64,000 nt of DNA from Phormidesmis priestleyi ULC007 (GTDB lineage: Bacteria > Cyanobacteriota > Cyanobacteriia > Leptolyngbyales > Leptolyngbyaceae): contig NZ_MPPI01000016.1 in the NCBI RefSeq assembly GCF_001895925.1, positions 1-64,000 on the forward strand, given 5' to 3'. This document shows positions 21,004-35,827 of this stretch, piece by piece. The position numbers and the translations under genes are program-made. The notes beneath the pieces were generated by a model. It did no database searches, had not been told where the DNA came from, and was given only the letters and a program-made list of their open reading frames with translations. Each line of letters starts with the position of its first letter. The first letter of the stretch is position 1.

Positions 21004-21044
21004 AGTTGTCGGTTGAACGATCGCAATTGTTCTTGAAATTAGAT

Positions 21045-21222: not shown

Positions 21223-21224
21223 TT

Positions 21225-21303
21225 AACGATCGTGGATTAAAAATATCGGTTACTTGCAACGCCAATGGGCACGGCAGTGCCATGCCCTTACAACGATCCT
21301 AAG
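21225..21303. repeat. Dispersed repeat (family E)
   Basis: 'ACGATCGTGGATTAAAAATAT', 'ACTTGCAACGCCAATGG' and the GGGCACGGCAGTGCCATGCCC hairpin, in the same order as at 12773. It abuts the MITE at 21222 and runs into the stop of the MinD-type gene, so it may serve as that gene's 3' hairpin. Confidence 0.5.
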
Positions 21304-22090
21304 CCAATAACTTCGCACCAGAACCCATAATTTGTTTAGCGATCGCAGTCACTTCTTGAGTCCAGGGATGATCGGGATATCGCAAGCAGAAGATGCCGCT
21401 GCTCCCCAAATCAAACATCTCTTCGCAGACTGGCAAAATGCCTGCCACTGGGGTTTCGTAGGTATTCTGCACCCGTTGCCGCAACTCTTTAAAGTTGAGA
21501 GTCGGCAGTGCTTTGTTAATGACGAGCAGCATCTTCGGCACTTCTAGCTTGCGAGCTACATCGATCGCGACGGCTGTACCTTGATAATCTTGCTTGTCTG
21601 GGCGAAGAATCAACACCAGCGTATCAGAGAGAATAATAGACAGCAACGTTTCTTCGTTAATGCCGGGATGCGTATCGATCAACAGATAATCTAACTTTAA
21701 GCGACGAACTAAATTATGCAACCCGTCATTCAGCAGACGTGCATCATAGCCTTCGCGCAAAACGCGAGAGATATCACTCATGCGAATGCTAGAAGGAAGA
21801 AGATGAATGCTGCCCTGACGACCAAAAAAGGATTGTTTTTGCTTCAGAATGGGACTGACATCGTAAACGGCTTCTTCGATCGCGCAACGTCCCCATAAAT
21901 AATCGTTTAGGGTATAGCGCATTTGATCTTCTTCCAGCCCAAATAAAACGTGAATTCCGGGCGATTGGATGTCGGTGTCAACTACTCCAACTCGGCGACC
22001 AGAACGAGCGATCAGCGTAGCGAGGTTACTGGTAACGTTTGATTTACCAGTTCCGCCACGAAACGAATGAACCGAGATTATTTCAGACAC
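21299..22090 (-). CDS. MinD/ParA-family P-loop ATPase
   Basis: A 263-residue SIMIBI ATPase. The P-loop is FRGGTGKSN (residues 10-18): the deviant Walker A lysine of MinD/ParA proteins (KGGxGKS) is replaced by Arg11. VVDTDIQSPG is the Walker A' region and DYLLIDTHPGINEE the Walker B. The protein lacks a MinD-type C-terminal membrane helix. Such ATPases position cell components or act as switches with a partner. It sits 49 bases downstream of a heme-sensor gene on the same strand, so the two probably form an operon with the ATPase as the sensor's partner; that link is inference. Confidence 0.85.
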   Translation of the reverse strand: MSEIISVHSFRGGTGKSNVTSNLATLIARSGRRVGVVDTDIQSPGIHVLFGLEEDQMRYTLNDYLWGRCAIEEAVYDVSPILKQKQSFFGRQGSIHLLPSSIRMSDISRVLREGYDARLLNDGLHNLVRRLKLDYLLIDTHPGINEETLLSIILSDTLVLILRPDKQDYQGTAVAIDVARKLEVPKMLLVINKALPTLNFKELRQRVQNTYETPVAGILPVCEEMFDLGSSGIFCLRYPDHPWTQEVTAIAKQIMGSGAKLLA

Positions 22091-22139
22091 GATAAATCCT
22101 CAAGGGTGAAACGACTGGTTAGATTAACTTAAACAATAA

Positions 22140-23204
22140 TTATTCATCCACAGCATCGCGCTTGCTTCTCATGGCTCTCGCCTCCTCCTGCAATTTTTGA
22201 AACGATTCTGATTCAGCGATTTCAGCAACTTGACGTGCCCGCTTATTGTCGTCAATTTCAAGACGAAGTTTTTGCAACTGTTGTCTGAGTTGTTGCTCAC
22301 GAGCATAAATTTCCTGCACCATACGTTGAAACACTCGTCCCAATTGTCCTAGCTCATCGTTTCGCTTGACGATCGCCTTAAGTTTTCCATGCTCAAACTC
22401 TGCCGCTTCCTCAGCGCTGATTTCATCCATACTGATTTTTTGAGCGAGTTGCGCCATGGGCTTAATCGGTTGCAGCACGTTTCGCTTGAGCAAATAGTTA
22501 ATCAGTAAAATAACTAGTGCGAAAATACCCACGAATATACTAATGATCAAAAAAGATGCACGATTGGCATCGTCAAAGACTTTGCTAGCAGGAACGTAAA
22601 TAATTTGGCTGCCTAACACTTCGTTGAGTTTCCATCCAAAGCCATTTTCTGAACCATAGCTGGCGATGTGGCTTTTTGGAGCGGCTTCTGGTGTGCTGTG
22701 ACAGCGCAAACAGGTCGCATTTTTGACTGAAAATGGACGAGCGCTATAAAACATCTTTTCGCCCACCGAGTCGCGAAATCCAGATATATTTTTCAGCCCT
22801 GATTCGCTGTTAAATCGTTTTGTGATACCCGCTTCAAACTCATCGGCTTTATCTCGTAAATTGGTTGGGTTTAGCAGCGCATCTTTATAAAAGAAGTCTT
22901 TATAGTCTTCATTTTTGCGAAGACTCTCAAAGACTTCTCTGACGGTGTAACTAGGAATGACTTCGGGAATAAACGTGGCTTGAGTGTCAACCATCGGCAT
23001 CAAGAGAGGGCTGACGTGAGTGTTTGTGAAAGCGCGTACCGAGTTCATCGTTTCTGCCAAAATTTGGCTGCGGTAGCCGATTTCAGATTCGGCTTTTTGC
23101 TCAAGGGCATGAGATAATGCAAAACCACTGATGACGATCGCACCAACAAACACCAGCGATAGAAGTAAAGTAAATTTTGTTGCCAATTTGAATCGATTAA
23201 ACAT
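22140..23204 (-). CDS. Membrane c-heme sensor: DUF3365 plus HAMP domain
   Basis: A 354-residue protein. A membrane helix (about residues 12-32) leads to an extracytoplasmic DUF3365 domain with one CxxCH heme-attachment site (Cys165, Cys168, His169). A second membrane helix follows (about 216-240), then a HAMP domain with RNDELGQLGRVFQRMV, and a C-terminal coiled coil. There is no kinase, cyclase or receiver domain, so the output must pass to a partner, plausibly the MinD-type ATPase encoded next. DUF3365 proteins are thought to sense redox state or small ligands through the heme. The start codon follows a hydrophobic-signal pattern typical of the family. Confidence 0.88.
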   Translation of the reverse strand: MFNRFKLATKFTLLLSLVFVGAIVISGFALSHALEQKAESEIGYRSQILAETMNSVRAFTNTHVSPLLMPMVDTQATFIPEVIPSYTVREVFESLRKNEDYKDFFYKDALLNPTNLRDKADEFEAGITKRFNSESGLKNISGFRDSVGEKMFYSARPFSVKNATCLRCHSTPEAAPKSHIASYGSENGFGWKLNEVLGSQIIYVPASKVFDDANRASFLIISIFVGIFALVILLINYLLKRNVLQPIKPMAQLAQKISMDEISAEEAAEFEHGKLKAIVKRNDELGQLGRVFQRMVQEIYAREQQLRQQLQKLRLEIDDNKRARQVAEIAESESFQKLQEEARAMRSKRDAVDE

Positions 23205-23645
23205 GGTCGTTTCCGTTGGTATTTACAACACTGCTGAAAATTTACGGATACTCATAAATCATTGGGCTTAAAATCTCTCGGCAATCATCTTAATAGTCTG
23301 TTACCGATCGAGATCAGTTCTAATAATTCATTGACGCTTATACGTTTATTCATACTGCGATATGCACTGAAAGCACCACATTGAGCGTGCATTCATCACT
23401 TTAGTTGGAGCGATCGGCGATCGCCTATAACGAAAGTCCGGGGTGTGATTTAACCGTGTGCAGCGAAAGTCAGACCGCCTCTACCTACTTCGCCTTAGAC
23501 CGAATCCTAGACGTTTTTCAGATGTGCATCCCTAGGTGAAATTCGTATTCTAGGGACATCAAGCAGGAAACGAATGAAGCGATTCACGCAATCACAATTC
23601 TGTTTGAGTCAACACACAAACACACAAACCAAGGAGAAACACATC
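23205..23645. other. Leader and intergenic region before the peptide genes
   Basis: A divergent gap between the heme-sensor gene and the first peptide gene, without a credible long frame. At 23521-23561 an inverted repeat (GATG..TCCCTAG / CTAGGGA.CATC) would form a hairpin about 85 bases upstream of the first peptide start. 'AAGGAGAAACACATC' precedes the ATG at 23646. The promoter for the peptide locus should lie here. Confidence 0.5.
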
Positions 23646-23861
23646 ATGTCTGAGAACAACTATTCTATGGAACTGTCTGCTGAAGATCTCGATCTCGTGG
23701 CTGGTGGCGCAAGACGATTTGCGGCTGCTGAAACCCAAGAACTCACTGACTTCCAAGCTAGCACCCTGAATTCTAGTCGCGGCGGTGTTAGCAGCACCAA
23801 CATTCAGGAAACCGACGACTTCAAGGCTGCCATCATCGAAGCGACCGAAACTGGCAACTAG
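23646..23861 (+). CDS. Gly-Gly leader bacteriocin-type precursor peptide 1
   Basis: A 71-residue precursor: a 21-residue leader ending ELSAEDLDLVAGG, then a 50-residue core beginning ARRFAAAETQ and ending AAIIEATETGN. The double glycine is the cleavage site for C39 peptidases, and one is encoded 5 kb downstream. The core is acidic and has no Cys, so lanthionines are excluded. The strong ribosome-binding site AAGGAG fixes the ATG at 23646 rather than an in-frame start 72 bases upstream. It is nearly identical to peptide 2. Such short leaders occur in cyanobacterial bacteriocin-type families; the biological activity of the core is unknown. Confidence 0.88.
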   Translation: MSENNYSMELSAEDLDLVAGGARRFAAAETQELTDFQASTLNSSRGGVSSTNIQETDDFKAAIIEATETGN

Positions 23862-23966
23862 TTCCACTGTTTGATTGCAACTTAGAGAGGTGCTTTCTCA
23901 AGGTAAATCCTCTCTGCTCAACTTCCTGACCGATCGTCAACTAACCACACTTTAAGGAGAACAAAA

Positions 23967-24188
23967 ATGAATTCCATCGACCCTATCCAATCTCAAGAAT
24001 TGTCTGCTGAAGATCTCGATTTAGTGGCTGGTGGCGCAAGACGATTTGCGGCTGCTGAGACTCAAGAACTCACTGACTTCCAAGCTAGCACCCTCAATTC
24101 TAGTCGCGGCGGTGTTAGCAGCACCAACATTCAAGAAACCGACGACTTCAAAGCTGCCATCTTTGAAGTGACCGAAACGGGCAACTAA
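23967..24188 (+). CDS. Gly-Gly leader precursor peptide 2
   Basis: A 73-residue precursor with a 23-residue leader (ELSAEDLDLVAGG) and a 50-residue core. The core differs from peptide 1 only in its last part (AAIFEVTETGN instead of AAIIEATETGN). A clean AAGGAGAAC ribosome-binding site precedes the ATG. The final 71 bases (24118-24188) are identical to those of peptide 3, pointing to recent gene conversion or unequal exchange. It should be cut after GG and exported by the same system as peptide 1. Confidence 0.88.
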   Translation: MNSIDPIQSQELSAEDLDLVAGGARRFAAAETQELTDFQASTLNSSRGGVSSTNIQETDDFKAAIFEVTETGN

Positions 24189-24257
24189 AGTCTGTCTTTT
24201 CAACCTTATCTAGTTCACTGATACATCACATACCCATACATCACAAGGAGAATGACC

Positions 24258-24476
24258 ATGACCTCAGAATCACACATCACCGTGGAACTGTCTGCTGAAG
24301 ATCTCGACCTAGTTGCAGGCGGTGCTCGTCGCGAAGCCGCAGCCTTCACCGCAGAACTACAAGACGTTCAGATCAGCACACTATCAGCCGATCGCAACGG
24401 GGTTCGCAGCACCAACATTCAAGAAACCGACGACTTCAAAGCTGCCATCTTTGAAGTGACCGAAACGGGCAACTAA
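24258..24476 (+). CDS. Gly-Gly leader precursor peptide 3
   Basis: A 72-residue precursor: a 22-residue leader with ELSAEDLDLVAGG and a 50-residue core. The core's first half is divergent (ARREAAAFTAELQDVQ) and its second half matches peptide 2. Two ATGs are close together. The one at 24258 has AAGGAG seven bases upstream, while that at 24252 leaves only one base, so 24258 is chosen. That all three cores have exactly 50 residues despite divergence suggests length is constrained. Confidence 0.85.
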   Translation: MTSESHITVELSAEDLDLVAGGARREAAAFTAELQDVQISTLSADRNGVRSTNIQETDDFKAAIFEVTETGN

Positions 24477-24545
24477 CCCCACGATCGGAATCGAGAGATA
24501 GTTTTCTAAACAAACTCTCATAGGGGCATGGCAGCGTGCCCCTAT

Positions 24546-24722
24546 GAGACCTCCTGCGTGAATAGGATTTCAGATATAAACTGCTCTCAGGTCTCGCTCC
24601 GTTTAGGTCGGCTTGTGCCCCCTAAATCCCCCATTCTGGGGGACTTTGAGAAGACTTACGGTTTCAAAGTCCCCCATTCTGGGGGATTTAGGGGGCGTTC
24701 CCGGATTTGTGCAGGAGGTCTA
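24546..24722. mobile_element. MITE family A, inverted copy, between peptide genes
   Basis: A 177-bp element with ends GAGACCTCCTGCGTGAAT and TTTGTGCAGGAGGTCTA and the hairpin core at 24617-24696. Compared with 21045-21222 it lies in the opposite orientation. It sits between peptides 3 and 4 and directly upstream of the peptide 4 ribosome-binding site, so it may end the upstream transcript or change expression of peptides 4 and 5. Confidence 0.8.
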
Positions 24723-24755
24723 TTTAACCGATACCCCCAATAAGGAGAACCCCCT

Positions 24756-25043
24756 ATGTCAGATGACCAAATTAAGCCCACCGATGCTGTCGAGTTGTCC
24801 GATGAGGAATTAGAGGACGTGGCAGGCGGTTTCAATCTCCGTTTGAATGCCGCTTTTTTCCGACAGACTAATATCTCAACTTCACAAGAGACTGGAGGAT
24901 ATGGTTCCTCAAAGTCTACGTTTGCGGCAGAAAACATCGAATCTGTCGGTCTTCAAATTCTGATCACCGATGCCAGTGCAGAAGACCTTGATGCTCTGAG
25001 TGGGCTGCTAGGAAGTGCGACTGCGATCGACGGTTCAGACTAA
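24756..25043 (+). CDS. Gly-Gly leader precursor peptide 4 (divergent)
   Basis: A 95-residue precursor: a 24-residue leader ending ELEDVAGG and a 71-residue product starting FNLRLNAAFFRQT. The leader keeps the acidic LSDEELEDVAGG pattern, but the product is unrelated to peptides 1-3. Near its end TDASAEDLDALSGLLGSA echoes the leader motif SAEDLDLVAGGA, as if a second leader-like segment were present. There is no Cys. The AAGGAGAAC ribosome-binding site fixes the ATG. The MITE just upstream separates it from peptides 1-3. Confidence 0.82.
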   Translation: MSDDQIKPTDAVELSDEELEDVAGGFNLRLNAAFFRQTNISTSQETGGYGSSKSTFAAENIESVGLQILITDASAEDLDALSGLLGSATAIDGSD

Positions 25044-25091
25044 ACACAACGACTCATAAAATAGCAAAAAATAGCAAGGAGAACAATTCTA

Positions 25092-25319
25092 ATGGACAAC
25101 AAAAAGCAACCTAAACCACAAGAGCTATCGGCTCAAGAACTTGCAGAAATCGCAGGTGGTGCTGCTGAATATCAACCAGGCAAGTATCCAGCCGATAGTA
25201 TATACGATACCGCCAAAGAAGCGATTTCAAAAAAGATTACCGATAAGGTGTCTGGTTATTACAACGACGATTCGGGAGTTGTTCCCTCCCCTAATCAATC
25301 ACCGCCGTTGATTCCATAG
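25092..25319 (+). CDS. Gly-Gly leader precursor peptide 5
   Basis: A 75-residue precursor. The leader (about 23 residues) contains LSAQELAEIAGG. The product starts AAEYQPGKYPADSIYDT and ends in a Pro-rich tail (VVPSPNQSPPLIP). Product and charge differ from all other peptides; it contains several Lys and Tyr residues and no Cys. AAGGAGAAC lies upstream at normal spacing. It is the last precursor before the accessory and transport genes. Confidence 0.8.
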   Translation: MDNKKQPKPQELSAQELAEIAGGAAEYQPGKYPADSIYDTAKEAISKKITDKVSGYYNDDSGVVPSPNQSPPLIP

Positions 25320-25381
25320 TAATCCTGAATGATTTGTGGGATGGGCATCCTGCCCGTACAGGCTAGAAGCTCCACTCTTAC

Positions 25382-25556
25382 CTACCGTGTATACGTAAGT
25401 CCTTTCGCTTCGTTATGAGCGGCTTCTGCCCCCTAAATCTCCCCAAATTGGGGGACTTTGAAACTGAAAGTCTGGGGTCAAAGTCCCGCAGGATGGAGGA
25501 TTTAGGGGGCGACCCCCAGCAATCTAAACTTAAAGCAATTTGTGTATACACGGTAG
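25382..25556. mobile_element. MITE family B, with hairpin core
   Basis: Perfect 13-base ends CTACCGTGTATAC and GTATACACGGTAG enclose the hairpin core at 25428-25510. CCACTCTTAC lies immediately before the element (25372-25381) and again just after it (25558-25567), which looks like a ~10-bp target duplication. Relatives are at 33794-33965, 41190-41365 and 41772-41930. The rest of the 497-base gap (25320-25816) holds no gene I can support. Confidence 0.75.
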
Positions 25557-25816
25557 CCCACTCTTACAAATCAACAACTCCTGTATTACGGACTTCACCA
25601 CACTCATTCTACAGATGCTTCGTTAAATTGTGCTCTCTTCGTTGAATTTTGACTGCTACTCTCTTCTCTCTCAACAAGCATCTGTAGTTTCATTCTAAAA
25701 AATTAGTATCTCCTACACGAGTTGCATAACACAGCAAAACCAATCGTGATCTTTTACTAGCTCCCTTATCCCCTCCGATCGATTCCCTCGTAGCAACACA
25801 GAAGGAAGTTAAATTT

Positions 25817-26911
25817 ATGACAGAAGTTCTACTAAAGGAACTGAGTAGCAGTGATGTTGACTGGATCTTGGCAACGGGTCGGAGAGAAGAAGTGACGGCT
25901 GGCACGACCCTGATCCGCCAAGGTACATTGGTTAATGCTCTCTACATTCTGCTAGATGGCGCATTGACCGTTTCAGTTGCTCAGGCTGACGATAACCCGA
26001 TCGGTCGGGCGTTTGCTGCCCTCGAAGGGGGCGAACTGTCAGGGCGAGAAATCGCCAGACTCACCAATGGGGAGGTAGTCGGAGAACTGCCGTTCTTAAC
26101 CTCCTACCAGTCTTCTACCACCGTCAAAGCACTCAGAAAATCGCTGGTGTTGATGATTCCGCAACAGCAGCTTATGGAGAAATTGCAGACAGACATCACG
26201 TTTGCGGCTCATCTCTATCGGGCGATCGCGGTTTTGTTGGCGCACCGACTAGAGCAGATTGTTAGTCAGATTGGACATAGTACGATCGTGTTATGCCAGC
26301 CTCAGATTCGAGAAATTTTGTGCACGTTTGCAGAGTTAAACGATAGTGATATTGGTTGGATGATTGCTGCGGGCAATGCTGTGAGGATTGCTGCGGGCGA
26401 TGTCTTGTTCCATGCTGGCAGACCCGTTGACGCATTTTACATTTTGCTAGATGGGAAAATGGTTACCTCGATCGCTGACGACGAAAGCAATCCTCTAACT
26501 CGTGCCTTTTCAAACTTAGAAGAAACCGATCACGTCGAACGAGAGTTTGCAAAACTATCGCGAGGCGACATGGTAGGCGAAACGCCTTTTGTGGAGGCGA
26601 GTCCGCCTGCGATGACAATTCGGGCAGTTGAGGATGCGATCGTGCTAGCAATTCCGCGCTGGCGGCTGGCGGCAAAACTGCTGCACGATGTTGGGTTTGC
26701 GGCTCGATTTTATCGCGTGTTAGCGATTTTGTTAGCCGACAAACAGCAAGGCATCATCAATCGGTTGGGCTACGGCAGAATCACCTACAGCTCAGGTCGA
26801 TCTCTCGACGATCGCTTGACCTACGAAGATGAACTGAGTTCGGGCTTTTTGGCTCAGGTAACGCTAGCGGGTACTCGATTTGACTGGATGCTGAAACAGA
26901 TTCGAGGGTAG
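25817..26911 (+). CDS. Bacteriocin-transport-associated protein with two cyclic-nucleotide-binding domains
   Basis: A 364-residue soluble protein of two tandem cNMP-binding-like domains (about 15-150 and 175-310). Each has the phosphate-cassette-like pattern: LYILLDGALTVSVA...GEVVGELPFL, then FYILLDGKMVTSIA...GDMVGETPFV. The cassettes lack the canonical R-x-A, so real nucleotide binding is doubtful. This arrangement matches the family named 'bacteriocin-type transport-associated protein' (TIGR03896), regularly found with NHLM-type exporters. Its place between precursors and exporter genes supports a role in docking or regulating export. Confidence 0.88.
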   Translation: MTEVLLKELSSSDVDWILATGRREEVTAGTTLIRQGTLVNALYILLDGALTVSVAQADDNPIGRAFAALEGGELSGREIARLTNGEVVGELPFLTSYQSSTTVKALRKSLVLMIPQQQLMEKLQTDITFAAHLYRAIAVLLAHRLEQIVSQIGHSTIVLCQPQIREILCTFAELNDSDIGWMIAAGNAVRIAAGDVLFHAGRPVDAFYILLDGKMVTSIADDESNPLTRAFSNLEETDHVEREFAKLSRGDMVGETPFVEASPPAMTIRAVEDAIVLAIPRWRLAAKLLHDVGFAARFYRVLAILLADKQQGIINRLGYGRITYSSGRSLDDRLTYEDELSSGFLAQVTLAGTRFDWMLKQIRG

Positions 26912-26930
26912 GGGCATGGCTATTGCCGTA

Positions 26931-27018
26931 GCCCTCACCCTAAATCCCTCTCCCCGTGGGAGAGGGACTTTGAATCTGGCTCCCTTCTCCCACGGGGAGA
27001 AGGGTTGGGGATGAGGGC
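26931..27018. repeat. Palindromic repeat (family D)
   Basis: GCCCTCACCCTAAATCCCTC pairs with the complementary GATGAGGGC end, and CCCGTGGGAGAGGGA pairs with TCTCCCACGGGG inside. A related copy lies at about 57964-58107, and flanks of another surround the MITE at 33794-33965. It may form a terminator between the cNMP gene and the HlyD gene. Confidence 0.6.
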
Positions 27019-27123
27019 GACAAGCCAGGCATCACCACGATTTGAACTCAAGTTGACACCAAGGGGGCACCCCGATGCCGCACCCCGATCGCATGTAAAT
27101 TTCGACAATTGAATGGAGTCAGT

Positions 27124-28566
27124 ATGGTCACGATCAACAAGAACAACCTATTCCGAAAAGAAGCCCTCGATCGCTTGTCGTCTCCAGAGCGACTCGATCA
27201 ACTGATGCAAATTGTTCAGCCTAAGAAGTGGATTCCGTTAGCGGCGATGGGATCTTTGATTGCGGTTGGGCTGACCTGGAGCGTTTTCGGTCGCATTCCC
27301 ATTACTGTTACAGGGCAGGGTGTCGTTGTTTATCCTAGCAAGGTGACGGCGTTTCAGTCTCCCAGTTCTGGGAAGATTCTCACTCTGAATATTCGTCCGG
27401 GTGATCAGGTGAAAAAAGGGCAGGTGATTGCCACGATCGACCAGACTGAACTGCAAGAAAAGTTAGACCTAGCTCGTGCCAAAATGGTTCAACTGCAAGA
27501 GCAAGATCGCGTTGCAAATTCACTGCAACTCCAGCGAACAGTCTTAGATAAGGGTGCCTTGCAACAACAGCGTCAGGCACTCCAGCAAAGTTTAGAGACA
27601 ACTCAATCCGTCACACCAATTATTAGAGATAAAGGTCTTAATTCAATTCGGCAAGAGCGGCAGAACTTAGAGCAACGATTGCAGACGACGCGAGATCTTT
27701 TACCGACCTTCAAACAGCGATTTGAGTTGCGGCAGCAGCTACGCCAAGAGGGTGCTGTGTCGAGTGATAGCGTGCTTCAGGCACAGCAAGAATTTCTTAA
27801 CAGCCAAACTAAAATCAACGAAATTCAATCGGAACAGAAACAGCTTGATGTCAAAGAAGCTGATGCTCAACGACAATTTTTAGAGAACGTCAATGCAACC
27901 AAAGATTTGCAAGCTCAGTTAGCAACACTAGACACAAAACTCGCAGGTCAAGCAGAACAAGATTTAGCCATTGCAACGAACCGTAAAAAAGAAATTCAAG
28001 ACACAGAGCGAACGATCGTACAACTGCAATCACAATTAAAAGGCAAAAGCCAGGTAAAAAGTAATTTTGATGGGCGAGTGTTAGAGGTTGTCGCCGTTTT
28101 AGGACAAACACTCGAAGAAGGAGGACGAATGGGCACGATCGAAGCTCAAGACTCCTCAAATAAATTGGTCGGGGTGGCATTTTTCCCAGTCAGTGAGGGC
28201 AAAAAGATTCAGAAGGGAATGGAGCTACAAGTTACCCCGTCTACGGTCAAACGAGAACGCTTTGGGGGCATTGTGGCAACCGTCACGAATATATCTGAGT
28301 TTCCGGTGACAAAAGAGGGTGCAGCGAGCGTGGTCGGCGGAACTGAAGTCTTGCAGAGCCTGCTCACTAAAGAGCCACAAATTCAAGTTTTTGCAGAGCT
28401 TCAACCTGACGCTTCGACAAAGAGCCATTTTCGTTGGTCTTCATCTAAGGGTCCCGAAACCCAAGTCACACCAGGTACGACGACCTCAGTGCGCGTCAAA
28501 ATCGATGAACAATCTCCGATTTCGTTTGTCTTTCCGATTCTGCGATCGTGGAGTGGAGCTTACTGA
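27124..28566 (+). CDS. NHLM-type bacteriocin secretion protein (HlyD family adaptor)
   Basis: A 480-residue periplasmic adaptor. A cytoplasmic N-terminus (~35 residues) is followed by one membrane helix (IPLAAMGSLIAVGLTWSVFG). A lipoyl-like half-motif (SPSSGKILTLNIRPGDQVKKGQVIATID), a long Gln-rich coiled-coil hairpin (about 110-310) and the second half-motif plus a beta-barrel domain (about 315-460) complete it. This is the adaptor that links the inner-membrane exporter to an outer-membrane channel. The ATG at 27124, with GGAG five bases upstream, is preferred over an in-frame TTG at 27109. Its stop lies two bases before the next ATG, so it is coupled to the exporter. Confidence 0.92.
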   Translation: MVTINKNNLFRKEALDRLSSPERLDQLMQIVQPKKWIPLAAMGSLIAVGLTWSVFGRIPITVTGQGVVVYPSKVTAFQSPSSGKILTLNIRPGDQVKKGQVIATIDQTELQEKLDLARAKMVQLQEQDRVANSLQLQRTVLDKGALQQQRQALQQSLETTQSVTPIIRDKGLNSIRQERQNLEQRLQTTRDLLPTFKQRFELRQQLRQEGAVSSDSVLQAQQEFLNSQTKINEIQSEQKQLDVKEADAQRQFLENVNATKDLQAQLATLDTKLAGQAEQDLAIATNRKKEIQDTERTIVQLQSQLKGKSQVKSNFDGRVLEVVAVLGQTLEEGGRMGTIEAQDSSNKLVGVAFFPVSEGKKIQKGMELQVTPSTVKRERFGGIVATVTNISEFPVTKEGAASVVGGTEVLQSLLTKEPQIQVFAELQPDASTKSHFRWSSSKGPETQVTPGTTTSVRVKIDEQSPISFVFPILRSWSGAY

Positions 28567-28568
28567 TT

Positions 28569-30824
28569 ATGCGAACTCTTGTTGGACAAATTGGACGTAA
28601 ATTAAGACCGATTCGGCAGATGATTAGCCCGCCCGATCGTCGCTGTCGAACTCCCACCCTCTTGCAAATGGAGGCAGTAGAATGCGGGGCGGCGGCACTG
28701 GGAATTATGTTGGGTTATTACGATCGCATTGTTCCTCTAGCTGAGTTGCGTCAAGCCTGCGGCGTTTCACGAGACGGCAGCAAAGCCTCTAATATTCTCA
28801 GCGCGGCGCGTAGCTATGGGTTGCAGGCAAAAGGCTTTAAGATCGAGTTAGAGGCGCTACGCAAACTGAACTGCCCCTACATTGTCTTTTGGAATTTCAA
28901 TCATTTCCTAGTTGTTGAAGGGTTTAGCAAAGACAAAGTTTATATCAACGATCCGGCGAGTGGGCCTCAAACCATTTCGCTAGAAGAGTTCGATCAAGCG
29001 TTTACTGGAGTCGTGCTGGTTGTTGAACCGGGTGCAGAATTTAAGCCAGGAGGACGTAAACCAAGTCTCATTCTCGCGTTGTGGGATCGATTGGAAAGCT
29101 CGATCGGGGCGCTGATCTATTGTGTAATCGCAGGATTGCTCTTAGTGATTCCTGGGTTAGCGATTCCAGCATTCTCTCAAGCGTTTGTCGATAATGTATT
29201 AATCGAAGGCAGAGACGATTGGTTGCATCCTTTAATCATTGGAATTATAGGCACAGCCGTATTAAGTGGATTTCTGACCTTGCTTCAGCTTCAGTTTCTT
29301 CGCCGCATGAAAATTAAGTTAGCTGTGGGCATGTCCAGCCGATTCTTATGGCATATTCTACGACTTCCAGTTAGCTTTTATGATCAGCGATTTGCCGGAG
29401 AAATTAGTAGCCGAGTTCGCCTCAACGACAGTCTAGCGAATCTGCTGTCAGGACGATTAGCTACTACCGCCATCTCCGCCTTTACCGTCGTTTTCTATGC
29501 TGTGGTGATGCTGCAATATGATGTCGTGTTGACCTCGATCGGCATCGCATTTGTGATAGTAAACGTCACCGTTTGGCGATGGGTTTCTCGTCAGCGCGTC
29601 GATGCCAATTTGCGTTTAATGCAAGAACAAGGCAAAGTCAGCGGGGTCTCGATTTCAGGGCTGCAAAGTATGGAAACGCTGAAGGCATCGGGGCTAGAGT
29701 CAGAATTCTTTTCCCGCTGGGCAGGCTACTACGCCAAAGCGATCAATGCCCGACAGGAAATGGATACGACGAATCAAACTCTGGGCGTACTGCCCTCGTT
29801 TTTGACCTCAATTACATCCATGCTGTTGCTGGTTGTGGGCGGACTGCGCGTCATGGATGGGGTGCTGAGTATTGGCATGCTGATTGCGTTTCAAGCATTG
29901 ATGCAGCGCTTTTTAGAGCCTGTCAATAATCTCGTCGGTCTCGCGGGTGAACTTCAAGAAATGGAAGGTAATCTCAATCGCCTGGATGATGTGTTGCGTA
30001 GCTCGATCGACCCTGCGGTCAAAGAACCCATCAGCGCCCCGCCGTCTGATGCTCTTCCTGCCGCTAATGTTCGGCTGCAAGGCTATATCGAACTTCGTAA
30101 CATTACCTTTGGCTACAATCGCTCTGCGCCGCCCTTAATCGAAAATCTCAGTCTGTCGCTCAAGCCAGGTCAACGAGTCGCATTAGTTGGGGGCAGTGGT
30201 TCAGGTAAGTCAACAGTTGCCAAACTGATTTGTGGTTTATATGAAGCCTGGTCAGGAGACATTTTGTTTGATGATCGATCGAGAAGCCAGATTCCTCGAT
30301 CGATTCTTACCCATTCGATCGCGCTAATTGAACAAGATATCTCACTGTTTGCTGGAAGTGTTCGGGACAATCTGACGCTATGGGATTCGACTGTTCCCTT
30401 TAGCAATTTAGTTCGCGCTTGCAAAGATGCCGCCATTCAGGATGTCGTGTTGTCGCTACCCGGAGGCTACAGCGCTGATCTAGCAGAAGGAGCCACCAAT
30501 TTAAGTGGCGGACAGCGACAGCGTTTAGAGATTGCTCGTTCCCTGGTGAACAATCCGGCGATTTTGATCATGGATGAAGCAACTAGCGCCCTCGATTCTG
30601 AAGCTGAAAGGCTAATTGATCAAAAACTCCGAGAGCGCGGCTGCACCTGTGTAATCGTGGCGCATCGGTTGAGTACGATTCGAGATTGTGACGAGATTAT
30701 TGTCTTCGATCGCGGCAAGGTAGTGCAACGAGGCACCCATGACGAGTTGCAGCAAATTGAAGGCAAATATTTGCAATTGATTCAGAGCGAAGGCGGAGCA
30801 CTTCAAGAGGAACAACCATGTTAG
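28569..30824 (+). CDS. C39 peptidase / permease / ATPase bacteriocin exporter (NHLM ABC1 type)
   Basis: A 751-residue fusion that cuts Gly-Gly leaders and exports the peptide. The N-terminal C39 peptidase has Cys39 (MEAVECGAAAL), His112 (NFNHFLVVEG) and Asp128 (INDPASG). Five or six membrane helices follow (about 180-440). The ATPase has Walker A VGGSGSGKST, signature NLSGGQRQRLEIARSL, Walker B ILIMDEATSALD and switch His in VAHRLST. All catalytic residues are present. The ATG at 28569 lies two bases after the adaptor stop, and the gene end overlaps the next start by seven bases. It is the obvious processing enzyme for the five precursors upstream. Confidence 0.94.
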   Translation: MRTLVGQIGRKLRPIRQMISPPDRRCRTPTLLQMEAVECGAAALGIMLGYYDRIVPLAELRQACGVSRDGSKASNILSAARSYGLQAKGFKIELEALRKLNCPYIVFWNFNHFLVVEGFSKDKVYINDPASGPQTISLEEFDQAFTGVVLVVEPGAEFKPGGRKPSLILALWDRLESSIGALIYCVIAGLLLVIPGLAIPAFSQAFVDNVLIEGRDDWLHPLIIGIIGTAVLSGFLTLLQLQFLRRMKIKLAVGMSSRFLWHILRLPVSFYDQRFAGEISSRVRLNDSLANLLSGRLATTAISAFTVVFYAVVMLQYDVVLTSIGIAFVIVNVTVWRWVSRQRVDANLRLMQEQGKVSGVSISGLQSMETLKASGLESEFFSRWAGYYAKAINARQEMDTTNQTLGVLPSFLTSITSMLLLVVGGLRVMDGVLSIGMLIAFQALMQRFLEPVNNLVGLAGELQEMEGNLNRLDDVLRSSIDPAVKEPISAPPSDALPAANVRLQGYIELRNITFGYNRSAPPLIENLSLSLKPGQRVALVGGSGSGKSTVAKLICGLYEAWSGDILFDDRSRSQIPRSILTHSIALIEQDISLFAGSVRDNLTLWDSTVPFSNLVRACKDAAIQDVVLSLPGGYSADLAEGATNLSGGQRQRLEIARSLVNNPAILIMDEATSALDSEAERLIDQKLRERGCTCVIVAHRLSTIRDCDEIIVFDRGKVVQRGTHDELQQIEGKYLQLIQSEGGALQEEQPC

Positions 30825-33745
30825 ATCAGATTCGGATTGTCACCTTGCCCGGAGAGTATTATCAACTTAAAGGCAATGAGCCACTGATTTTAGATGACCC
30901 GGAGACGATTTGGGTCGTGAAATCGGGTTCGTTAGCAGTGTTCGCAATGCCCGTCAAAGAAGGGGTTGCTGAAGGAACTCGCCGCTATTTGTTCACAACA
31001 CGATCGCGGCAAGCTCTGTTCTCGATCTCTAGCGATTTTGAGCCGTTGCCCTATCAGCTTTTTGCAGTATCAATCGAAGAAACCGAACTGCTCAAAGTGT
31101 CGATCAAAGATTTTCGCCAATTTATCGCCGAAGGCAATGGCGAAGCTCTGGCTTTAATCAACGGATGGGTTGAACAACTGGGATTAGCGGTGTCTACGAT
31201 CGTTCCTCCTGGACTGCCGTTTCAAGAAGAAGGGGTGCGTTATTTTTCACTCACCAATGGTCAGATCTTCCAGCCTCAGCGAGAGCTTGTCTCGTGGGTA
31301 CAGATCCAGCGCGGCTATGCCAACTGGATGGGATTTGAGGAACTGTTGCTCACACCCCAATCGGGACTGTTGCCCGTGAGTGCAGATATGTGGTTTCAAG
31401 CCGAAGATACGATCGAGCTTGAAACCCTAACAACAGAACAGGTAGAAGATCCCAACACTTTGTTGATGGGCATCTTCCAGCTTCAAGTTTATGTGCTGCA
31501 AACCCTGTACTTTTTAGAACAGCAGGAAACCAGCGACGAATTACAGCGATTTCAACAACGGCAACACCTCAATCATCAGGTGATGGAGGAAACGCTGGGT
31601 GAGTTAGCCTCGTTGCTGCAAGCCCAACAAGCCATCCCATCTGCCCAGCTTGGAGACAATGATTTTGATCAGGCTTTGCTGATTGCGGCGGGTGCTGTTG
31701 GGCGAGTTTTGGGCGTGACGATTCGACCGCCCGCCAAGTCTGAAGACATGAATCGGGTGCAAGATCCGCTGCAAGCGATCGCGCGGGCTTCTCGGCTGCG
31801 AATGCGCTCGATCGCGCTGCAAGGTCAGTGGTGGAAAAAAGATTGCGGTGCCATGCTCGCTTACACAGTTGAGGACAATCATCCAGTAGCGCTGTTGCCG
31901 ATCTCAGATACTCGCTATGAGATCTTCGACCCAATTAAGAGAACTCACATTCCCATTAATGCTAAGAGCGCTGCCACACTCGCAAACACCGGATACACGT
32001 TCTATCGCCCATTGCCCGACAAAGTTCTCAAGACGATCGATCTGCTGAAATTTGCCCTGCAAGGACACTATAAAGAATTGATGGTGGTTTTGACAGCGGG
32101 TGCTGCAACAACATTGTTGGGAATGATCACCCCCCAAGCTACCGCAATTTTGGTTGATAGTGCGATTCCAGATGCCGATCGCGGCTTATTAGTGCAAATC
32201 GCCTTAGCACTTCTGGCAACCGCTTTTGGCAGCACACTTTTTCAACTCGCTCAAGGTTTTGCGATTATGCGAGTCGAAACCTTTGCCGATGCCTCAACCC
32301 AAGCCGCAGTCTGGGATCGGCTGCTCAACTTAAAAGCTTCCTTTTTTCGCCAGTACTCGATCGGAGACTTAAACTCACGGGTGAGCGCGGTGACTCAAAT
32401 CCGTCAAAAACTCAGCAGCACCGTTCTCAGAAGTATTTTTACTGGCTTGTTTGCATTCCTAAACTTAGGACTTTTGTTTTACTACAACGCTTCATTAGCG
32501 TTAATCGCACTCGTTGTAGCGCTGATTAACATTTCCGTTACGCTTTTTTCAGGAATGTCTACGCTCCGCAAGACGCGCCCGTTATTAGAATTGCAGGGGC
32601 AGCTATTCGGGGTGATGGTGCAGTTGATTAACGGGGTGCCTAAACTTCGAGTCGCTGGGGCTGAATCTCGTGCCTTTGCGTTTTGGGGAAAACAATATAG
32701 TCAACAAATTAAATGGATGTTGAGTACGCAGGGCGTTGAAGATGTACTTGCGGTGGTTAATAAAATCTTGCCTGCATTAACGACCGCAACGCTATTCTGG
32801 TTCGCAACGAGCTTAATTCAGCAATCGTCCTCACAAGAGGGAGGATTATCCACAGGTGTATTTTTAGCGTTTAACGCCGCATTTGGCACCTTTATTAGTG
32901 GAGCCACCAGTTTGAGTGGCACGATCGTCGATGTTCTGCAAGTGGTGCCGCTCTGGGAACGAGCGCAGCCCATTCTAGAAGCCAAACCCGAAGTAGATTC
33001 TGACAAATCAGATCCGGGCAGACTGTCGGGTCGAGTCCTCGTCGATCATGTGATTTTTCGCTATCGGGATGACGGGCCACTGACGCTAGATGATGTCACA
33101 ATCCGCGCTGAACCGGGCGAGTTTATTGCCTTCGTAGGCGCTTCGGGAAGTGGCAAATCAACGCTATTCCGATTACTACTAGGGTTCGACGCGCCAGAAT
33201 CGGGCACTGTCTACTACGACGGACAAGATCTCGCGGGTCTGGATGTTCACGCCGTGCGTCGGCAGTTAGGGGTGGTTATGCAAAATAGCCGATTGACCTC
33301 CGCATCGATCTTTGAGAATATCGCCAGTGGAGCCATGATCACGATGGATGAGGCATGGGAAGGGGCGGGGATGGCTGGCTTTGCTGAAGATGTAGAATCG
33401 ATGCCGATGGGCATGCACACGGTAATCAGCGAAGGGGGCACCAACCTTTCTGGCGGGCAACGGCAGCGATTATTGATCGCCCGATCGCTCGTCTTAAAAC
33501 CCAAAATTCTGCTATTTGACGAAGCCACTAGCGCACTAGATAACCGCACCCAAGCGATCGTCAGTCAAAGCTTAGAGCGCCTCAAAGTCACGCGCATTGC
33601 GATCGCGCATCGTCTCAGCACCATTCGGAACGCCGATCGAATTTATGTGTTTCAGAATGGTCGCGTGGTGCAGGAGGGCAATTTTGACCAACTCGCCGAG
33701 CAACCAGGACTGTTTGCCCAACTGATGGCACGACAAAAACTTTAA
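30818..33745 (+). CDS. Second NHLM-type ABC permease/ATPase with degenerate peptidase-like region
   Basis: A 975-residue protein. The first ~240 residues are cupin/cNMP-like (GSLAVFAMPV). Residues about 330-400 resemble a C39 domain (WWKKDCGAMLAYTVE...PVALLP...YEIFDP). The Cys is present in DCGAML, but the rest is divergent, so it is probably not a peptidase. A six-helix membrane domain follows (about 420-690), then an ATPase with Walker A GASGSGKST, signature NLSGGQRQRLLIARSL and Walker B ILLFDEATSALD. This is the second ABC protein (ABC2) of NHLM loci and likely forms a heteromeric exporter with the preceding protein. The start overlaps that gene's stop. Confidence 0.9.
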   Translation: MLDQIRIVTLPGEYYQLKGNEPLILDDPETIWVVKSGSLAVFAMPVKEGVAEGTRRYLFTTRSRQALFSISSDFEPLPYQLFAVSIEETELLKVSIKDFRQFIAEGNGEALALINGWVEQLGLAVSTIVPPGLPFQEEGVRYFSLTNGQIFQPQRELVSWVQIQRGYANWMGFEELLLTPQSGLLPVSADMWFQAEDTIELETLTTEQVEDPNTLLMGIFQLQVYVLQTLYFLEQQETSDELQRFQQRQHLNHQVMEETLGELASLLQAQQAIPSAQLGDNDFDQALLIAAGAVGRVLGVTIRPPAKSEDMNRVQDPLQAIARASRLRMRSIALQGQWWKKDCGAMLAYTVEDNHPVALLPISDTRYEIFDPIKRTHIPINAKSAATLANTGYTFYRPLPDKVLKTIDLLKFALQGHYKELMVVLTAGAATTLLGMITPQATAILVDSAIPDADRGLLVQIALALLATAFGSTLFQLAQGFAIMRVETFADASTQAAVWDRLLNLKASFFRQYSIGDLNSRVSAVTQIRQKLSSTVLRSIFTGLFAFLNLGLLFYYNASLALIALVVALINISVTLFSGMSTLRKTRPLLELQGQLFGVMVQLINGVPKLRVAGAESRAFAFWGKQYSQQIKWMLSTQGVEDVLAVVNKILPALTTATLFWFATSLIQQSSSQEGGLSTGVFLAFNAAFGTFISGATSLSGTIVDVLQVVPLWERAQPILEAKPEVDSDKSDPGRLSGRVLVDHVIFRYRDDGPLTLDDVTIRAEPGEFIAFVGASGSGKSTLFRLLLGFDAPESGTVYYDGQDLAGLDVHAVRRQLGVVMQNSRLTSASIFENIASGAMITMDEAWEGAGMAGFAEDVESMPMGMHTVISEGGTNLSGGQRQRLLIARSLVLKPKILLFDEATSALDNRTQAIVSQSLERLKVTRIAIAHRLSTIRNADRIYVFQNGRVVQEGNFDQLAEQPGLFAQLMARQKL

Positions 33746-33793
33746 GAGCATTTATTAAGGTGCAACTTCTCGTCCTCACCCTGGGACTCTCCC

Positions 33794-33965
33794 CATACCG
33801 TACACACAAGTCTTTGTCGCTGCGTTCCAGTCCTTTCAGCCCCCTAAATCCCCCACGAGTGAGGGACTTTGAGCTAAGGCTCTAGTTTCAAAGTCCCCCA
33901 TTTTGGGGGATTTAGGGGGCGAAGATCTCAGCAATGACGAATCGAGACTTGTGTATACACAGTAG
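33794..33965. mobile_element. MITE family B, inserted inside a family D palindrome
   Basis: Ends resembling TACCGTACACACAAGTCT and AGACTTGTGTATACACAGTA surround the hairpin core at 33839-33920. The flanks 'CCTCACCCTGGGACTCTCCCC' and 'CTCCCGCAGGAGAGGGG' plus 'TTTAGGGTGAGGG' are the two halves of a family D palindrome, so this copy landed in an older repeat. The 422-base gap after the exporter gene (33746-34167) holds nothing else recognisable. Confidence 0.7.
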
Positions 33966-34167
33966 CTCCCGCAGGAGAGGGGTTTAGGGTGAGGGTTATT
34001 TCACATCGCATAATTCAGTATGACAAAAGTCATTAGAAACCTACTCATCAGATAACGAAAGTCGTAGAGAATCTCCCTAGTTCGTTGAGGTCGATTCATG
34101 ACATTTTTCAGAGGTTTATTCTGTTTGTAATCCTTACGATGAAGTTATTCAAATTGAAGGTAAACCT

Positions 34168-34452
34168 ATGAACTGTCTAACTTCAACCCACAATAACAAC
34201 TTACTCTCTTCCATGCGGCAACAGCTTTCATCGATCGAGATTTGTCATCCCAAAGTTGCGCGATTGTTGTGCAAAATGATTCCGGCTCGTTGCCCTTTTG
34301 AGCGAGAAATTAAGCTTTTTAATCGCCCGATCGCTCACATTCCACCGTTCTGTAAACTCAACCCTTTCTACGACCAAATTGTTGAAATTCGTTTCAAGTC
34401 TCTCTCTTACTTAGCTGATCACTGTGGTGAAGATATTACCCTCTATTGTTAA
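34168..34452 (+). CDS. Mo-dependent nitrogenase C-terminal domain family protein
   Basis: A 94-residue protein. The core LCKMIPARCPFEREIKLFNRPIAHIPPFCKLNPFYDQ ... LADHCGEDI is the cyanobacterial Mo-nitro_C pattern, with three conserved Cys residues. Despite the family name these small proteins also occur in non-fixing cyanobacteria, and their role is unknown; no nif gene is in the window. The start codon follows GAAGGTAAACCT, an acceptable ribosome-binding site. The next gene begins within 14 bases, so the two may be co-transcribed. Confidence 0.8.
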   Translation: MNCLTSTHNNNLLSSMRQQLSSIEICHPKVARLLCKMIPARCPFEREIKLFNRPIAHIPPFCKLNPFYDQIVEIRFKSLSYLADHCGEDITLYC

Positions 34453-34465
34453 AGGAACAACGATC

Positions 34466-35011
34466 ATGGTAGCTACTCTTTTTGAAACACTCAAAGTCAA
34501 CGTTAGCCTCATTTTTGCCCTGCTTGTGTCGAGTCCTTCGAGCATCGGTGCAGAAACGGTTCCTATCCCCAGTAATCTAAACGTTCCTAGTGGTCAACAA
34601 CTGATTTTAAAAGCCTCTGCCAAAGGCTCTCAGATCTATGTTTGCACTCTGAAGACTCCCTATCCTGCTCAATATGAATGGACGCTAAAGGCTCCCGATG
34701 CCATCTTAGTGAATGAGCAAAGGCAATATCTGGCAAAGCATTATGCAGGCCCAACGTGGGAGGCAAAAGACGGCAGCAAAGTGGTAGCGATCGTAAAATC
34801 TAAGACAGCCGCACCTCAAGATCGCGCCATTCCCTGGCTGTTGTTAGAGGCACGATCGCACGAGGGCAATGGAATTCTTCGCTCAGTTAATTGGATTCAA
34901 CGAGTGAATACGATTGGCGGAAAGGCTCCGGCTCAAGGATGTGACGAGTCCTTTCAAGACCGGGAGGTTCGAGTAAATTATACGGCTGATTATCTCTTTT
35001 ATGGAGACTGA
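34466..35011 (+). CDS. DUF3455 family secreted protein
   Basis: A 181-residue protein with a hydrophobic N-terminus ending near SIGAETV, which looks like a signal peptide, so it is probably exported. The body contains VPSGQQLILKASAKGSQIYVC, YEWTLKAPDA and HYAGPTWEAKDGSKVV, the usual DUF3455 run; the family is of unknown function and often found in bacteria and fungi. AAAGGAAC upstream supports the ATG at 34466. An in-frame GTG at 34424 would overlap the preceding gene and spoil the signal sequence. A family G hairpin follows the stop. Confidence 0.8.
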   Translation: MVATLFETLKVNVSLIFALLVSSPSSIGAETVPIPSNLNVPSGQQLILKASAKGSQIYVCTLKTPYPAQYEWTLKAPDAILVNEQRQYLAKHYAGPTWEAKDGSKVVAIVKSKTAAPQDRAIPWLLLEARSHEGNGILRSVNWIQRVNTIGGKAPAQGCDESFQDREVRVNYTADYLFYGD

Positions 35012-35022
35012 CGTTTTAATAT

Positions 35023-35050
35023 GTAGGGACACAATATATCGTGTCCCTAC
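35023..35050. repeat. Short palindromic repeat (family G)
   Basis: GTAGGGACACAATATATCGTGTCCCTAC is nearly perfectly palindromic over 28 bases. It lies between the DUF3455 stop and the gluconokinase start and could act as a terminator or as an inserted repeat. Relatives are at 8866 and 20978. Confidence 0.55.
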
Positions 35051-35063
35051 TCCAGGATTAAAA

Positions 35064-35549: not shown

Positions 35550-35576
35550 CAATTGTGATTGATCGGTTCAATCCGC

Positions 35577-35606
35577 CGGGGCACGCCGTGCCATGCCCCT
35601 ACAATG
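35577..35606. repeat. Short palindromic repeat (family G-like)
   Basis: GGGGCACGCCGTGCCATGCCCCTAC is a hairpin-forming repeat 28 bases after the gluconokinase stop, a candidate terminator. Confidence 0.45.
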
Positions 35607-35644
35607 CGAATCTGTCGCATTCGCAAATCAAATTGGTGTCACTC

Positions 35645-35824: not shown

Positions 35825-35827
35825 AGG

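What the first reader, a model, noticed from the sequence alone, without database searches (positions are those of the whole stretch)
23646..33745. Peptide secretion locus with five precursors and no modifying enzyme
Five Gly-Gly-leader precursors, a double cNMP-domain protein, an adaptor, a C39 exporter with intact Cys39/His112/Asp128 and a second ABC protein are all encoded on one strand. Precursors 1-3 have cores of exactly 50 residues, acidic and Cys-free. No lanthionine synthetase, radical SAM, YcaO or other maturase is visible within the window. The products may be unmodified secreted acidic peptides rather than classical bacteriocins, or may be modified by a distant enzyme. The export genes belong to known families (TIGR03794/03796/03797/03896 types); the precursors' activity is unknown.
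Basis: partly seen in the sequence, partly recalled or inferred. Interest (0 to 1): 0.75.

Follow-up and report, generated by a model that had tools for sequence, protein, structure and literature searches.

The report
Peptide exporter with swappable secreted cargo
This is a known kind of cyanobacterial peptide-secretion gene cluster (a 'group V bacteriocin' cluster) whose small secreted proteins are probably left unmodified, and in related cyanobacteria nearly identical exporters carry completely different cargo swapped in as a block, with no recognised immunity gene.

Summary
In detail: five Gly-Gly precursors, a bimodular cNMP-domain protein, HlyD, a C39 exporter with intact triad and a second ABC protein on one strand. 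The layout equals 'group V' of Wang et al. 2011 (PMC3140520), so the kind is not new. No LANC-like, YcaO or SPASM match passes its cut-off in the host genome, and all five cores lack Cys; other maturases were not searched.

What looks new is the cargo. In 13 related loci the array cores form three classes that do not follow the exporter: same-class versus different-class pairs share 52.5 versus 19.2% core identity but 90.0 versus 90.3% exporter identity. Homology stops at the leader/core junction and resumes inside precursor 4. Precursor 4's first half co-varies with the array, its second half only weakly. No convincing immunity gene lies in the swapped block. A MinD-like ATPase and a HAMP sensor are linked to the exporter.

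Best guess: unmodified, strain-specific secreted proteins that assemble outside the cell, in role like EbfG matrix proteins, rather than classical bacteriocins. Function is inferred.

The parts
21299..22090 (-). MinD/ParA-like ATPase, linked to the exporter in relatives
   Evidence: Pfam ParA/AAA_31/CbiA; 85-92% identical, upstream and on the minus strand in 12 of 12 close loci with enough upstream sequence
22140..23204 (-). membrane sensor: Tll0287-like domain (CLRCH haem-type motif) plus HAMP, no output domain found
   Evidence: PF11845 and PF00672; motif in the ORF; 74-86% identical in the same 12 loci
23205..23645 (.). conserved divergent intergenic region, probably regulatory
   Evidence: DNA alignment of 10 loci with long invariant stretches; no Rfam match
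23646..23861 (+). precursor P1 (array type), core 23709-23858, 50 aa
   Evidence: NF038167 31.7 bits, cut-off 32; AF2 long beta-hairpin
23967..24188 (+). precursor P2 (array type), core 96% identical to P1
   Evidence: dN/dS with P1 0.07
24252..24476 (+). precursor P3 (array type); start may be 24258
   Evidence: NF038167 32.6 bits, over cut-off
24756..25043 (+). precursor P4: core N-half 24831-24968 co-varies with the array, C-half 24969-25040 nearly constant
   Evidence: NF038167 40.8 bits; AF2 hairpin plus helix
25092..25319 (+). precursor P5, conserved third type, not in the CTB family by score
   Evidence: homologues in related loci
25817..26911 (+). bimodular cNMP-domain protein
   Evidence: TIGR03896 301.6 bits, cut-off 161; no Arg at the aligned phosphate-binding position in 20 of 20 proteins, both domains
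27109..28566 (+). HlyD-type adaptor (start may be ATG 27124)
   Evidence: TIGR03794 395.3 bits, cut-off 156
28569..30824 (+). C39 peptidase / ABC exporter, triad C39/H112/D128
   Evidence: TIGR03796 1168.7 bits, cut-off 853; nearest solved protease 6mpz
30818..33745 (+). second ABC exporter subunit without peptidase
   Evidence: TIGR03797 1054.8 bits, cut-off 709

Best explanation
A group V (NHLP-type) type 1 secretion locus. The C39 domain cuts P1-P5 after GG while the ABC proteins, HlyD and an unlinked TolC-type channel export the cores, unmodified. The array products (P1-P3) and the N-half of P4 are matched, strain-specific long beta-hairpins that assemble together outside the cell; the constant C-terminal helix of P4 docks to a constant partner. 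The product is most likely surface or matrix material carrying strain identity, comparable in role to EbfG proteins. The cargo is replaced as a block by recombination between conserved leader DNA and the conserved 3' half of P4. The sensor and the MinD-like ATPase probably govern when or where the exporter works. Shown by sequence: anatomy, no match over cut-off to three maturase families, cargo replacement, P4 co-variation, linkage of the sensor/MinD pair. Predicted: hairpin fold, cleavage site. Inferred: export of unmodified cores, co-assembly, surface role, role of MinD.
For: Domain scores over cut-offs. Window leaders fit the solved C39 recognition rule. TolC-type genes exist elsewhere in the genome. 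No LANC-like, YcaO or SPASM over cut-off. Cargo independent of exporter: first array core 52.5 vs 19.2% (same vs different class), C39 90.0 vs 90.3%; the exporter tree needs 4 class changes where 2 would do. Junctions at the GG codon and inside P4. Partial Mantel array core vs P4 N-half, given C39: r 0.80, p 0.0002, n 13; 0.83 without the window; 0.69, p 0.0002, with ten representatives. AF2 predicts two-stranded hairpins of about 20 residues per strand for both (pLDDT 84 and 80). dN/dS 0.07-0.31 among window array cores. S. elongatus EbfG1-4: GG-motif proteins needed for biofilm, EbfG1-3 amyloid-forming (PMC4997328 results section; PMC9981879 passages).
Against: No expression, secretion, binding or imaging data for this locus. 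EbfG is not in the CTB family by model: no hit in the S. elongatus control genome. Block replacement of cargo is also a mark of toxins, and NCBI names CTB proteins bacteriocins. pTM is low (0.38, 0.41), no solved fold matches at E<=0.001, and the cores show no beta-amphipathic signal over shuffles (no positive control). Class labels are not scattered at random on the exporter tree (as low in 19 of 200 shuffles). Some dN/dS values among relatives exceed 1, at tiny dS. The MinD family also occurs without the exporter: none of 40 fetched loci has a cluster-like exporter gene. P5 and the P4 C-half co-vary weakly too (r 0.42, p 0.003; r 0.18, p 0.04).
Confidence: 0.42

Rival explanations
1. Unmodified multi-peptide bacteriocin: array peptides and P4 form a toxin against siblings or competitors, with immunity encoded elsewhere or given by lack of a receptor.
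For: Variable GG-peptide genes beside a conserved transporter region, with recombination at the leader, are described for pneumococcal blp bacteriocins (PMC4860687 passages). NCBI names the family CTB bacteriocin. A CTB operon of Nodularia is induced in P-depleted medium and discussed as allelopathic (PMC9846622 passages). Foldseek's weak neighbours include beta-hairpin stems of pore formers.
Against: blp loci carry immunity genes; here the block holds only GG precursors with a strong ribosome site, apart from stray ORFs. The hairpins are not amphipathic beyond shuffles. The many related copies look unusual for a toxin pair (opinion).
Confidence: 0.3
2. Secreted signal peptides (pherotypes) that report strain identity or density.
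For: C39 exporters of this kind also export quorum signals (abstract of PMC6363468 as listed). A sensor gene is divergently transcribed.
Against: The sensor and MinD proteins do not change with the cargo class: same versus different class 81.1 vs 81.1% and 87.3 vs 88.0%, whereas a pherotype receptor would be expected to co-vary. 50-70-residue, multi-copy cargo is large for a signal (opinion).
Confidence: 0.13
3. RiPP precursors modified by an enzyme encoded elsewhere.
For: A stand-alone LanM serving group V clusters is proposed for Prochlorococcus (PMC3140520 discussion). LanM sits upstream of related exporters in L144 and L153. 8 of 14 P4-size cores of the close group hold a Cys.
Against: No LANC-like, YcaO or SPASM over cut-off in the host; no LANC-like match in 5 of 14 close genomes; the five window cores are Cys-free. 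Other maturases were not searched.
Confidence: 0.08

Closest known systems
Cyanobacterial 'group V' bacteriocin clusters (Wang et al. 2011, PMC3140520; Fischerella PCC 9431 example in PMC4558948)
   Same: HlyD, short-type C39 ABC, extra ABC without C39, bimodular CAP_ED protein, several precursors with little core conservation
   Different: The sections and passages that I read do not mention cargo-block exchange, the three precursor types or the MinD/sensor pair
CTB family bacteriocin, NF038167
   Same: P3 and P4 pass the cut-off, P1 and P2 lie below it by 0.3 and 3.7 bits
   Different: P5 does not belong by score; no call here established the family's function
EbfG1-4/PteB of Synechococcus elongatus (PMC4997328, PMC9981879)
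   Same: operon of several GG-motif small proteins with a C39 exporter; peptides starting right after GG or GA found in the medium
   Different: no CTB hit in the S. elongatus control; exporter type not compared; EbfG4 is cut after GA
Pneumococcal blp bacteriocin locus (PMC4860687)
   Same: conserved transporter region with variable GG-peptide genes and recombination near the leader
   Different: blp has a quorum system and immunity genes; neither was recognised here
Prochlorosins (PMC10783134, search listing only; core diversity recalled)
   Same: conserved leaders, diverse cores, cyanobacterial
   Different: modified by ProcM; here Cys-free window cores and no LANC-like match over cut-off

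Membership tests
Wang group V cluster | HlyD plus short-type C39-ABC | tested here: met
   TIGR03794 and TIGR03796 over cut-off; C39, membrane and ABC domains, no CAP_ED match in the C39 protein
Wang group V cluster | additional ABC transporter without C39 | tested here: met
   TIGR03797 1054.8 bits; no PF03412 listed
Wang group V cluster | bimodular protein of two CAP_ED domains | tested here: met
   two PF00027 stretches, TIGR03896
Wang group V cluster | no LanM in the cluster (else group IV) | tested here: met
   no LANC-like over cut-off in the genome
CTB family NF038167 | score over curated cut-off (32 bits) | tested here: inconclusive
   P3 32.6 and P4 40.8 pass; P1 31.7, P2 28.3, P5 14.6 do not
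Lanthipeptide | LanC-like cyclase and Cys in the core | tested here: not met
EbfG matrix protein | sequence relation to the CTB family | tested here: not met
   no NF038167 hit in the S. elongatus control at E<=1
EbfG matrix protein | needed for biofilm; amyloid formation | not testable with these tools
   experimental
Class II (blp-like) bacteriocin | immunity gene with the cargo | tested here: not met
   only GG precursors in the block apart from stray ORFs (13 loci; 5 of 13 loci with a looser rule); an unrecognised immunity gene elsewhere is not excluded
Class II (blp-like) bacteriocin | antibacterial activity | not testable with these tools
   experimental
cAMP/cGMP-binding domain | Arg in the phosphate-binding cassette (recalled) | tested here: not met
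   0 of 40 aligned domain positions (20 proteins) hold Arg

The most novel reading that the evidence does not exclude
An immunity-free polymorphic secretion system for self-identity: a fixed exporter with interchangeable blocks of beta-hairpin subunits, each block bringing its own matching half of an adaptor protein (P4) whose other half is constant, with placement or timing set by a MinD-like ATPase and a haem-type HAMP sensor. It would be a bacterial recognition or strain-specific matrix system outside the known toxin-immunity logic.
Probability: 0.2. Interest if true: 0.82.

Novelty: new variant of a known kind. Interest (0 to 1): 0.55.

Why it matters
Many cyanobacterial GG-peptide clusters are called bacteriocins without a known product. 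The cargo exchange at the GG junction, the matching half of P4 and the lack of a recognised immunity gene give a concrete, testable alternative: strain-specific secreted structures. The natural swaps between strains with 97-98% identical C39 exporters (L100, L101, L102) make the question directly testable by comparing strains or exchanging cassettes.

Tried and rejected
Lanthionine or azole modification: rejected for want of LANC-like and YcaO matches over cut-off and of Cys in the window cores; a LANC-like match of E 0.22 with a stop inside lay below cut-off. Transmembrane beta-barrel toxin: the 175-degree hydrophobic moment of the hairpins was below, not above, shuffles (mean z -1.0 and -0.8; eight further cores -0.4 to -1.7; no positive control was run). 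Solved-fold relatives: none at E<=0.001. A search of the host genome with the paired CGAAAGT motif gave no excess over its control (2 against 4 matches). Rfam: nothing at the gathering score in 19800-36000. The MinD gene as exclusive partner of the exporter: rejected. Of 40 MinD loci away from it that I fetched, none has a cluster-like exporter gene (best C39ABC hit 40%, ABC2 44% over 163 residues, cNMP 32%), and 15 of 40 have a hit to one of the two sensor queries.

Errors and rows left out: the labels preMinD and preCWin came from a wrong-strand translation; one search replaces them. L095 (contig begins inside the array) and L104 (short contig) are not among the 13 loci; P5 comparisons use 12. 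Only the first array precursor of each locus enters the array identities. Class labels were first given by eye; the window's membership of class alpha rests on P1 and P2 (11.3 and 13.5 bits against a best of 8.4 in 500 shuffles), while P3 (7.7) fails that bar. My leader motif fixes position -12 as L and narrows -7 and -4, so the counts over 77 precursors are not independent evidence; the five window leaders were read directly. One search's motif missed some precursors (one in L092, the arrays of L094 and L103), recovered. Relatives beyond the best 80 of 126 were not seen.
Full report
WHAT IS THERE. The stretch 23646-33745 encodes, on the plus strand, five small Gly-Gly-leader proteins, a protein of two cNMP-type domains, a HlyD adaptor, a C39 peptidase/ABC exporter and a second ABC protein. 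The four large proteins pass the curated cut-offs of TIGR03896, TIGR03794, TIGR03796 and TIGR03797 by wide margins. Every precursor has an ATG preceded by an AAGGAG-type site; the cores are 50, 50, 50, 70 and 52 residues, Cys-free and acidic. A scan of the window for the leader motif found these five and no others. The C39 triad reads Cys39, His112, Asp128 from ATG 28569. The nearest solved relative of the C39 domain is 6mpz, by its title the LahT-type protease of PMC6363468 (passages; linking entry and paper is my inference). [quoted passage not shown] the five window leaders have V or I at -4, L at -7, L at -12 and GG.

WHAT IT IS CALLED. The set HlyD, short C39-ABC, extra ABC without C39 and bimodular CAP_ED protein is 'group V' of Wang et al. 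2011 (PMC3140520; abstract and three sections read). A related locus of my set, L114 in Fischerella sp. PCC 9431, comes from the strain used as the group V example in PMC4558948 (passages). The precursors relate to NCBI's 'CTB family bacteriocin' (NF038167): P3 and P4 over the cut-off, P1 and P2 below it, P5 not. The term 'CTB family bacteriocin' was found in 2 papers of the library; the passages seen give expression under P limitation and strain differences, with a bacteriocin role discussed but not tested there.

NO MATCH TO THREE KINDS OF MATURASE. The host assembly (5.68 Mb, 98.97% complete) has no LANC-like match over cut-off, no YcaO match at E<=1 and no SPASM match at E<=0.01. Of the 14 genomes of the close loci L091-L104, 5 have no LANC-like match (those of L091, L092, L093, L103, L104), and that of L095 has two short ones, one of 67 positions just over the cut-off; completeness of these assemblies is not given. 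In more distant relatives LanM sits upstream of the same kind of exporter (L144, L153). Radical SAM enzymes without SPASM, ATP-grasp ligases and other maturases were not searched, so 'unmodified' is likely, not shown. The window cores lack Cys, but 8 of 14 P4-size cores of the close group hold one.

RELATED LOCI. A search with the cNMP protein gave 126 relatives, of which 80 were returned. In the close group the stretch between the sensor gene and the cNMP gene is filled with GG precursors: an array of one to eight related copies, in several alpha loci one further type, then a P4 type, then a P5 type, with a second P5-like stretch in L101 and L102. Among ORFs with a strong ribosome site the 13 loci show only precursors, apart from an antisense ORF in L096, ORFs of 31 and 26 residues in L101 and L103, and masked sequence in L091 and L096. 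A looser test in 5 of the 13 loci found other conserved small ORFs mostly in the conserved DNA upstream of the array. Inside the blocks there was only a 31-residue antisense ORF of L102 shared with L094 and L103. Outside the blocks lay an 84-residue ORF between P4 and P5 of L100 shared with L101 and L102, a 38-residue ORF between P5 and the cNMP gene of L102 shared with 8 loci, and two of 37-38 residues there in L101 shared with one or two loci. I regard none as a convincing immunity gene, but an unrecognised one is not excluded.

CARGO DOES NOT FOLLOW THE EXPORTER. Array cores of the 13 loci form three classes: alpha (window, L092, L096-L100), beta (L091, L093, L101), gamma (L094, L102, L103). 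L100, L101 and L102 have C39 exporters 97-98% identical and one class each; L094 and L102 have 89% identical exporters and the same class. Over all 78 pairs the mean identity of same-class against different-class pairs is 52.5 against 19.2% for the first array core, 57.4 against 36.6% for the P4 N-half, 74.5 against 75.6% for the P4 C-half and 90.0 against 90.3% for the C39 exporter. On a tree of the four exporter proteins the classes need 4 changes where 2 would do; they are still somewhat clustered (as low in 19 of 200 shuffles). In the 7 different-class pairs with C39 identity of 96% or more, DNA identity is 86-93% in the 300 bases before the array and 79-92% in the leader, then 57-71% in the first 60 bases of the core, against 65-68% for shuffled sequence; in P4 it is 74-91% in the leader, 57-71% in the N-half (shuffled 67-69%) and 81-93% in the C-half. 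For L101 against L102 the alignment ends on the last base of the GG codon (7395 and 8107) and resumes five codons before the constant part of P4. The simplest reading is replacement of a block by recombination between leader DNA and the P4 3' half.

P4 AS AN ADAPTOR. Given exporter identity, array similarity predicts P4 N-half similarity (partial Mantel r 0.80, p 0.0002, n 13; 0.83 without the window; 0.86 without window and L092; 0.69, p 0.0002, with ten representatives) and hardly P4 C-half similarity (0.18, p 0.04; 0.16, p 0.14 with ten) or the other exporter genes (p 0.17-0.42); P5 is intermediate (0.42, p 0.003, n 12). Physical linkage within the block can explain co-inheritance; a functional match is inferred. 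AlphaFold2 gives, for the P1 core with 37 sequences, one hairpin of strands 2-20 and 29-47 (pLDDT 84, pTM 0.38), and for the P4 core with 35 sequences strands 2-21 and 27-46 plus a helix 50-60 (pLDDT 80, pTM 0.41). The helix lies in the constant half. A two-stranded sheet alone is unlikely to be stable, which suggests assembly (inference). No solved structure matches at E<=0.001; weak neighbours include hairpin stems of pore formers, flagellar ring proteins and ribosomal proteins. The hairpins show no two-faced pattern over shuffles. Among the window array cores dN/dS is 0.07-0.31, as for real proteins under constraint; a few pairs in L097 and L099 exceed 1 at very small dS.

THE NEIGHBOURS. 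A MinD/ParA-like ATPase and a Tll0287-HAMP membrane protein without a recognised output domain are divergently transcribed from the array. They lie upstream on the minus strand in 12 of 12 close loci with enough upstream sequence, and downstream of the second ABC gene in L105 and L108. A MinD homologue of 200 residues or more lies in 49 of 80 loci, and in 38 of the 55 loci of at least 19 kb. Reading together by hand, 12 of 26 bimodular TIGR03896 loci in 386 sampled genomes of the phylum have a MinD homologue within 10 kb. Neither protein follows the cargo class: same against different class 87.3 against 88.0% (MinD) and 81.1 against 81.1% (sensor). The same MinD family also occurs far from the exporter. 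A role in placing or timing secretion is my inference. The cNMP protein has no Arg at the aligned phosphate-binding position in 40 of 40 domains of 20 proteins, so it probably does not sense cAMP in the usual way (the Arg rule is recalled).

HOW IT PROBABLY WORKS. Shown: anatomy, no match over cut-off to three maturase families, cargo exchange, co-variation of half of P4, linkage of the sensor pair. Predicted: cleavage after GG, hairpin fold. Inferred: export of unmodified cores, assembly of array products with P4, a surface or matrix role. Experimentally studied GG-motif proteins of a cyanobacterium are EbfG1-4, needed for biofilm, with EbfG1-3 amyloid-forming (PMC4997328 results section; PMC9981879 passages); they are not CTB proteins by model. 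A comparable exchange of cargo beside a conserved transporter is the pneumococcal blp locus, which carries immunity genes (PMC4860687 passages).

LITERATURE LIMITS. Ten paper searches were allowed and nine used. None listed a title or abstract on block exchange of cargo in group V clusters or on their link to a MinD/HAMP pair; the library lacks most subscription papers, so this is no proof of novelty.

Noticed in passing
L059 8830-11170 (host contig C29:74829-77169): A second array of GG precursors with a different leader (MIISELSYLEVATEA..DLEGG) and a SurA-like gene at 8055-8786 (named by eye); no exporter seen in the ORF list of the stretch. Two of its four NF038167 matches pass the cut-off.
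   Followed up: partly
window 23205-23645: Divergent intergenic DNA with long invariant stretches in 10 loci (TAGACGTTTTTCAGATG) and repeated CGAAAGT motifs; no excess of the paired motif in the genome.
   Followed up: partly
L144 8579-9865, L163 8789-9958: DUF7005 protein between MinD and the cNMP gene in two distant relatives; L144 has a LanM upstream, L163's genome has no LANC-like match.
   Followed up: no
L144 5102-7702: 867-residue protein without any Pfam match at E<=0.001, between the sensor and MinD genes.
   Followed up: no
window 21299-22090: The MinD-like P-loop reads FRGGTGKS, with Arg where the MinD/ParA signature Lys is expected (recalled rule); the same in most of the relatives printed.
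   Followed up: no
window 24528-24743 and 25378-25645: Spacers around the precursors hold ORFs with similar PPKSPILGDF-type strings in different frames, probably a short dispersed repeat.
   Followed up: no
window 20000-20980: PhnD-like periplasmic binding protein next to the MinD gene; only a 34-residue trace in L103 among the relatives. A CTB operon is induced by P limitation in Nodularia, which may be coincidence.
   Followed up: partly
L101, L146, L152, L156, L165: Extra or partial copies of the cNMP gene next to the main one.
   Followed up: no
L104-L106, L109, L110, L112, L116, L127: Loci with 69-75% identical cNMP proteins and no precursor by my leader motif (L104 and L110 are short contigs); cargo type unknown.
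   Followed up: no
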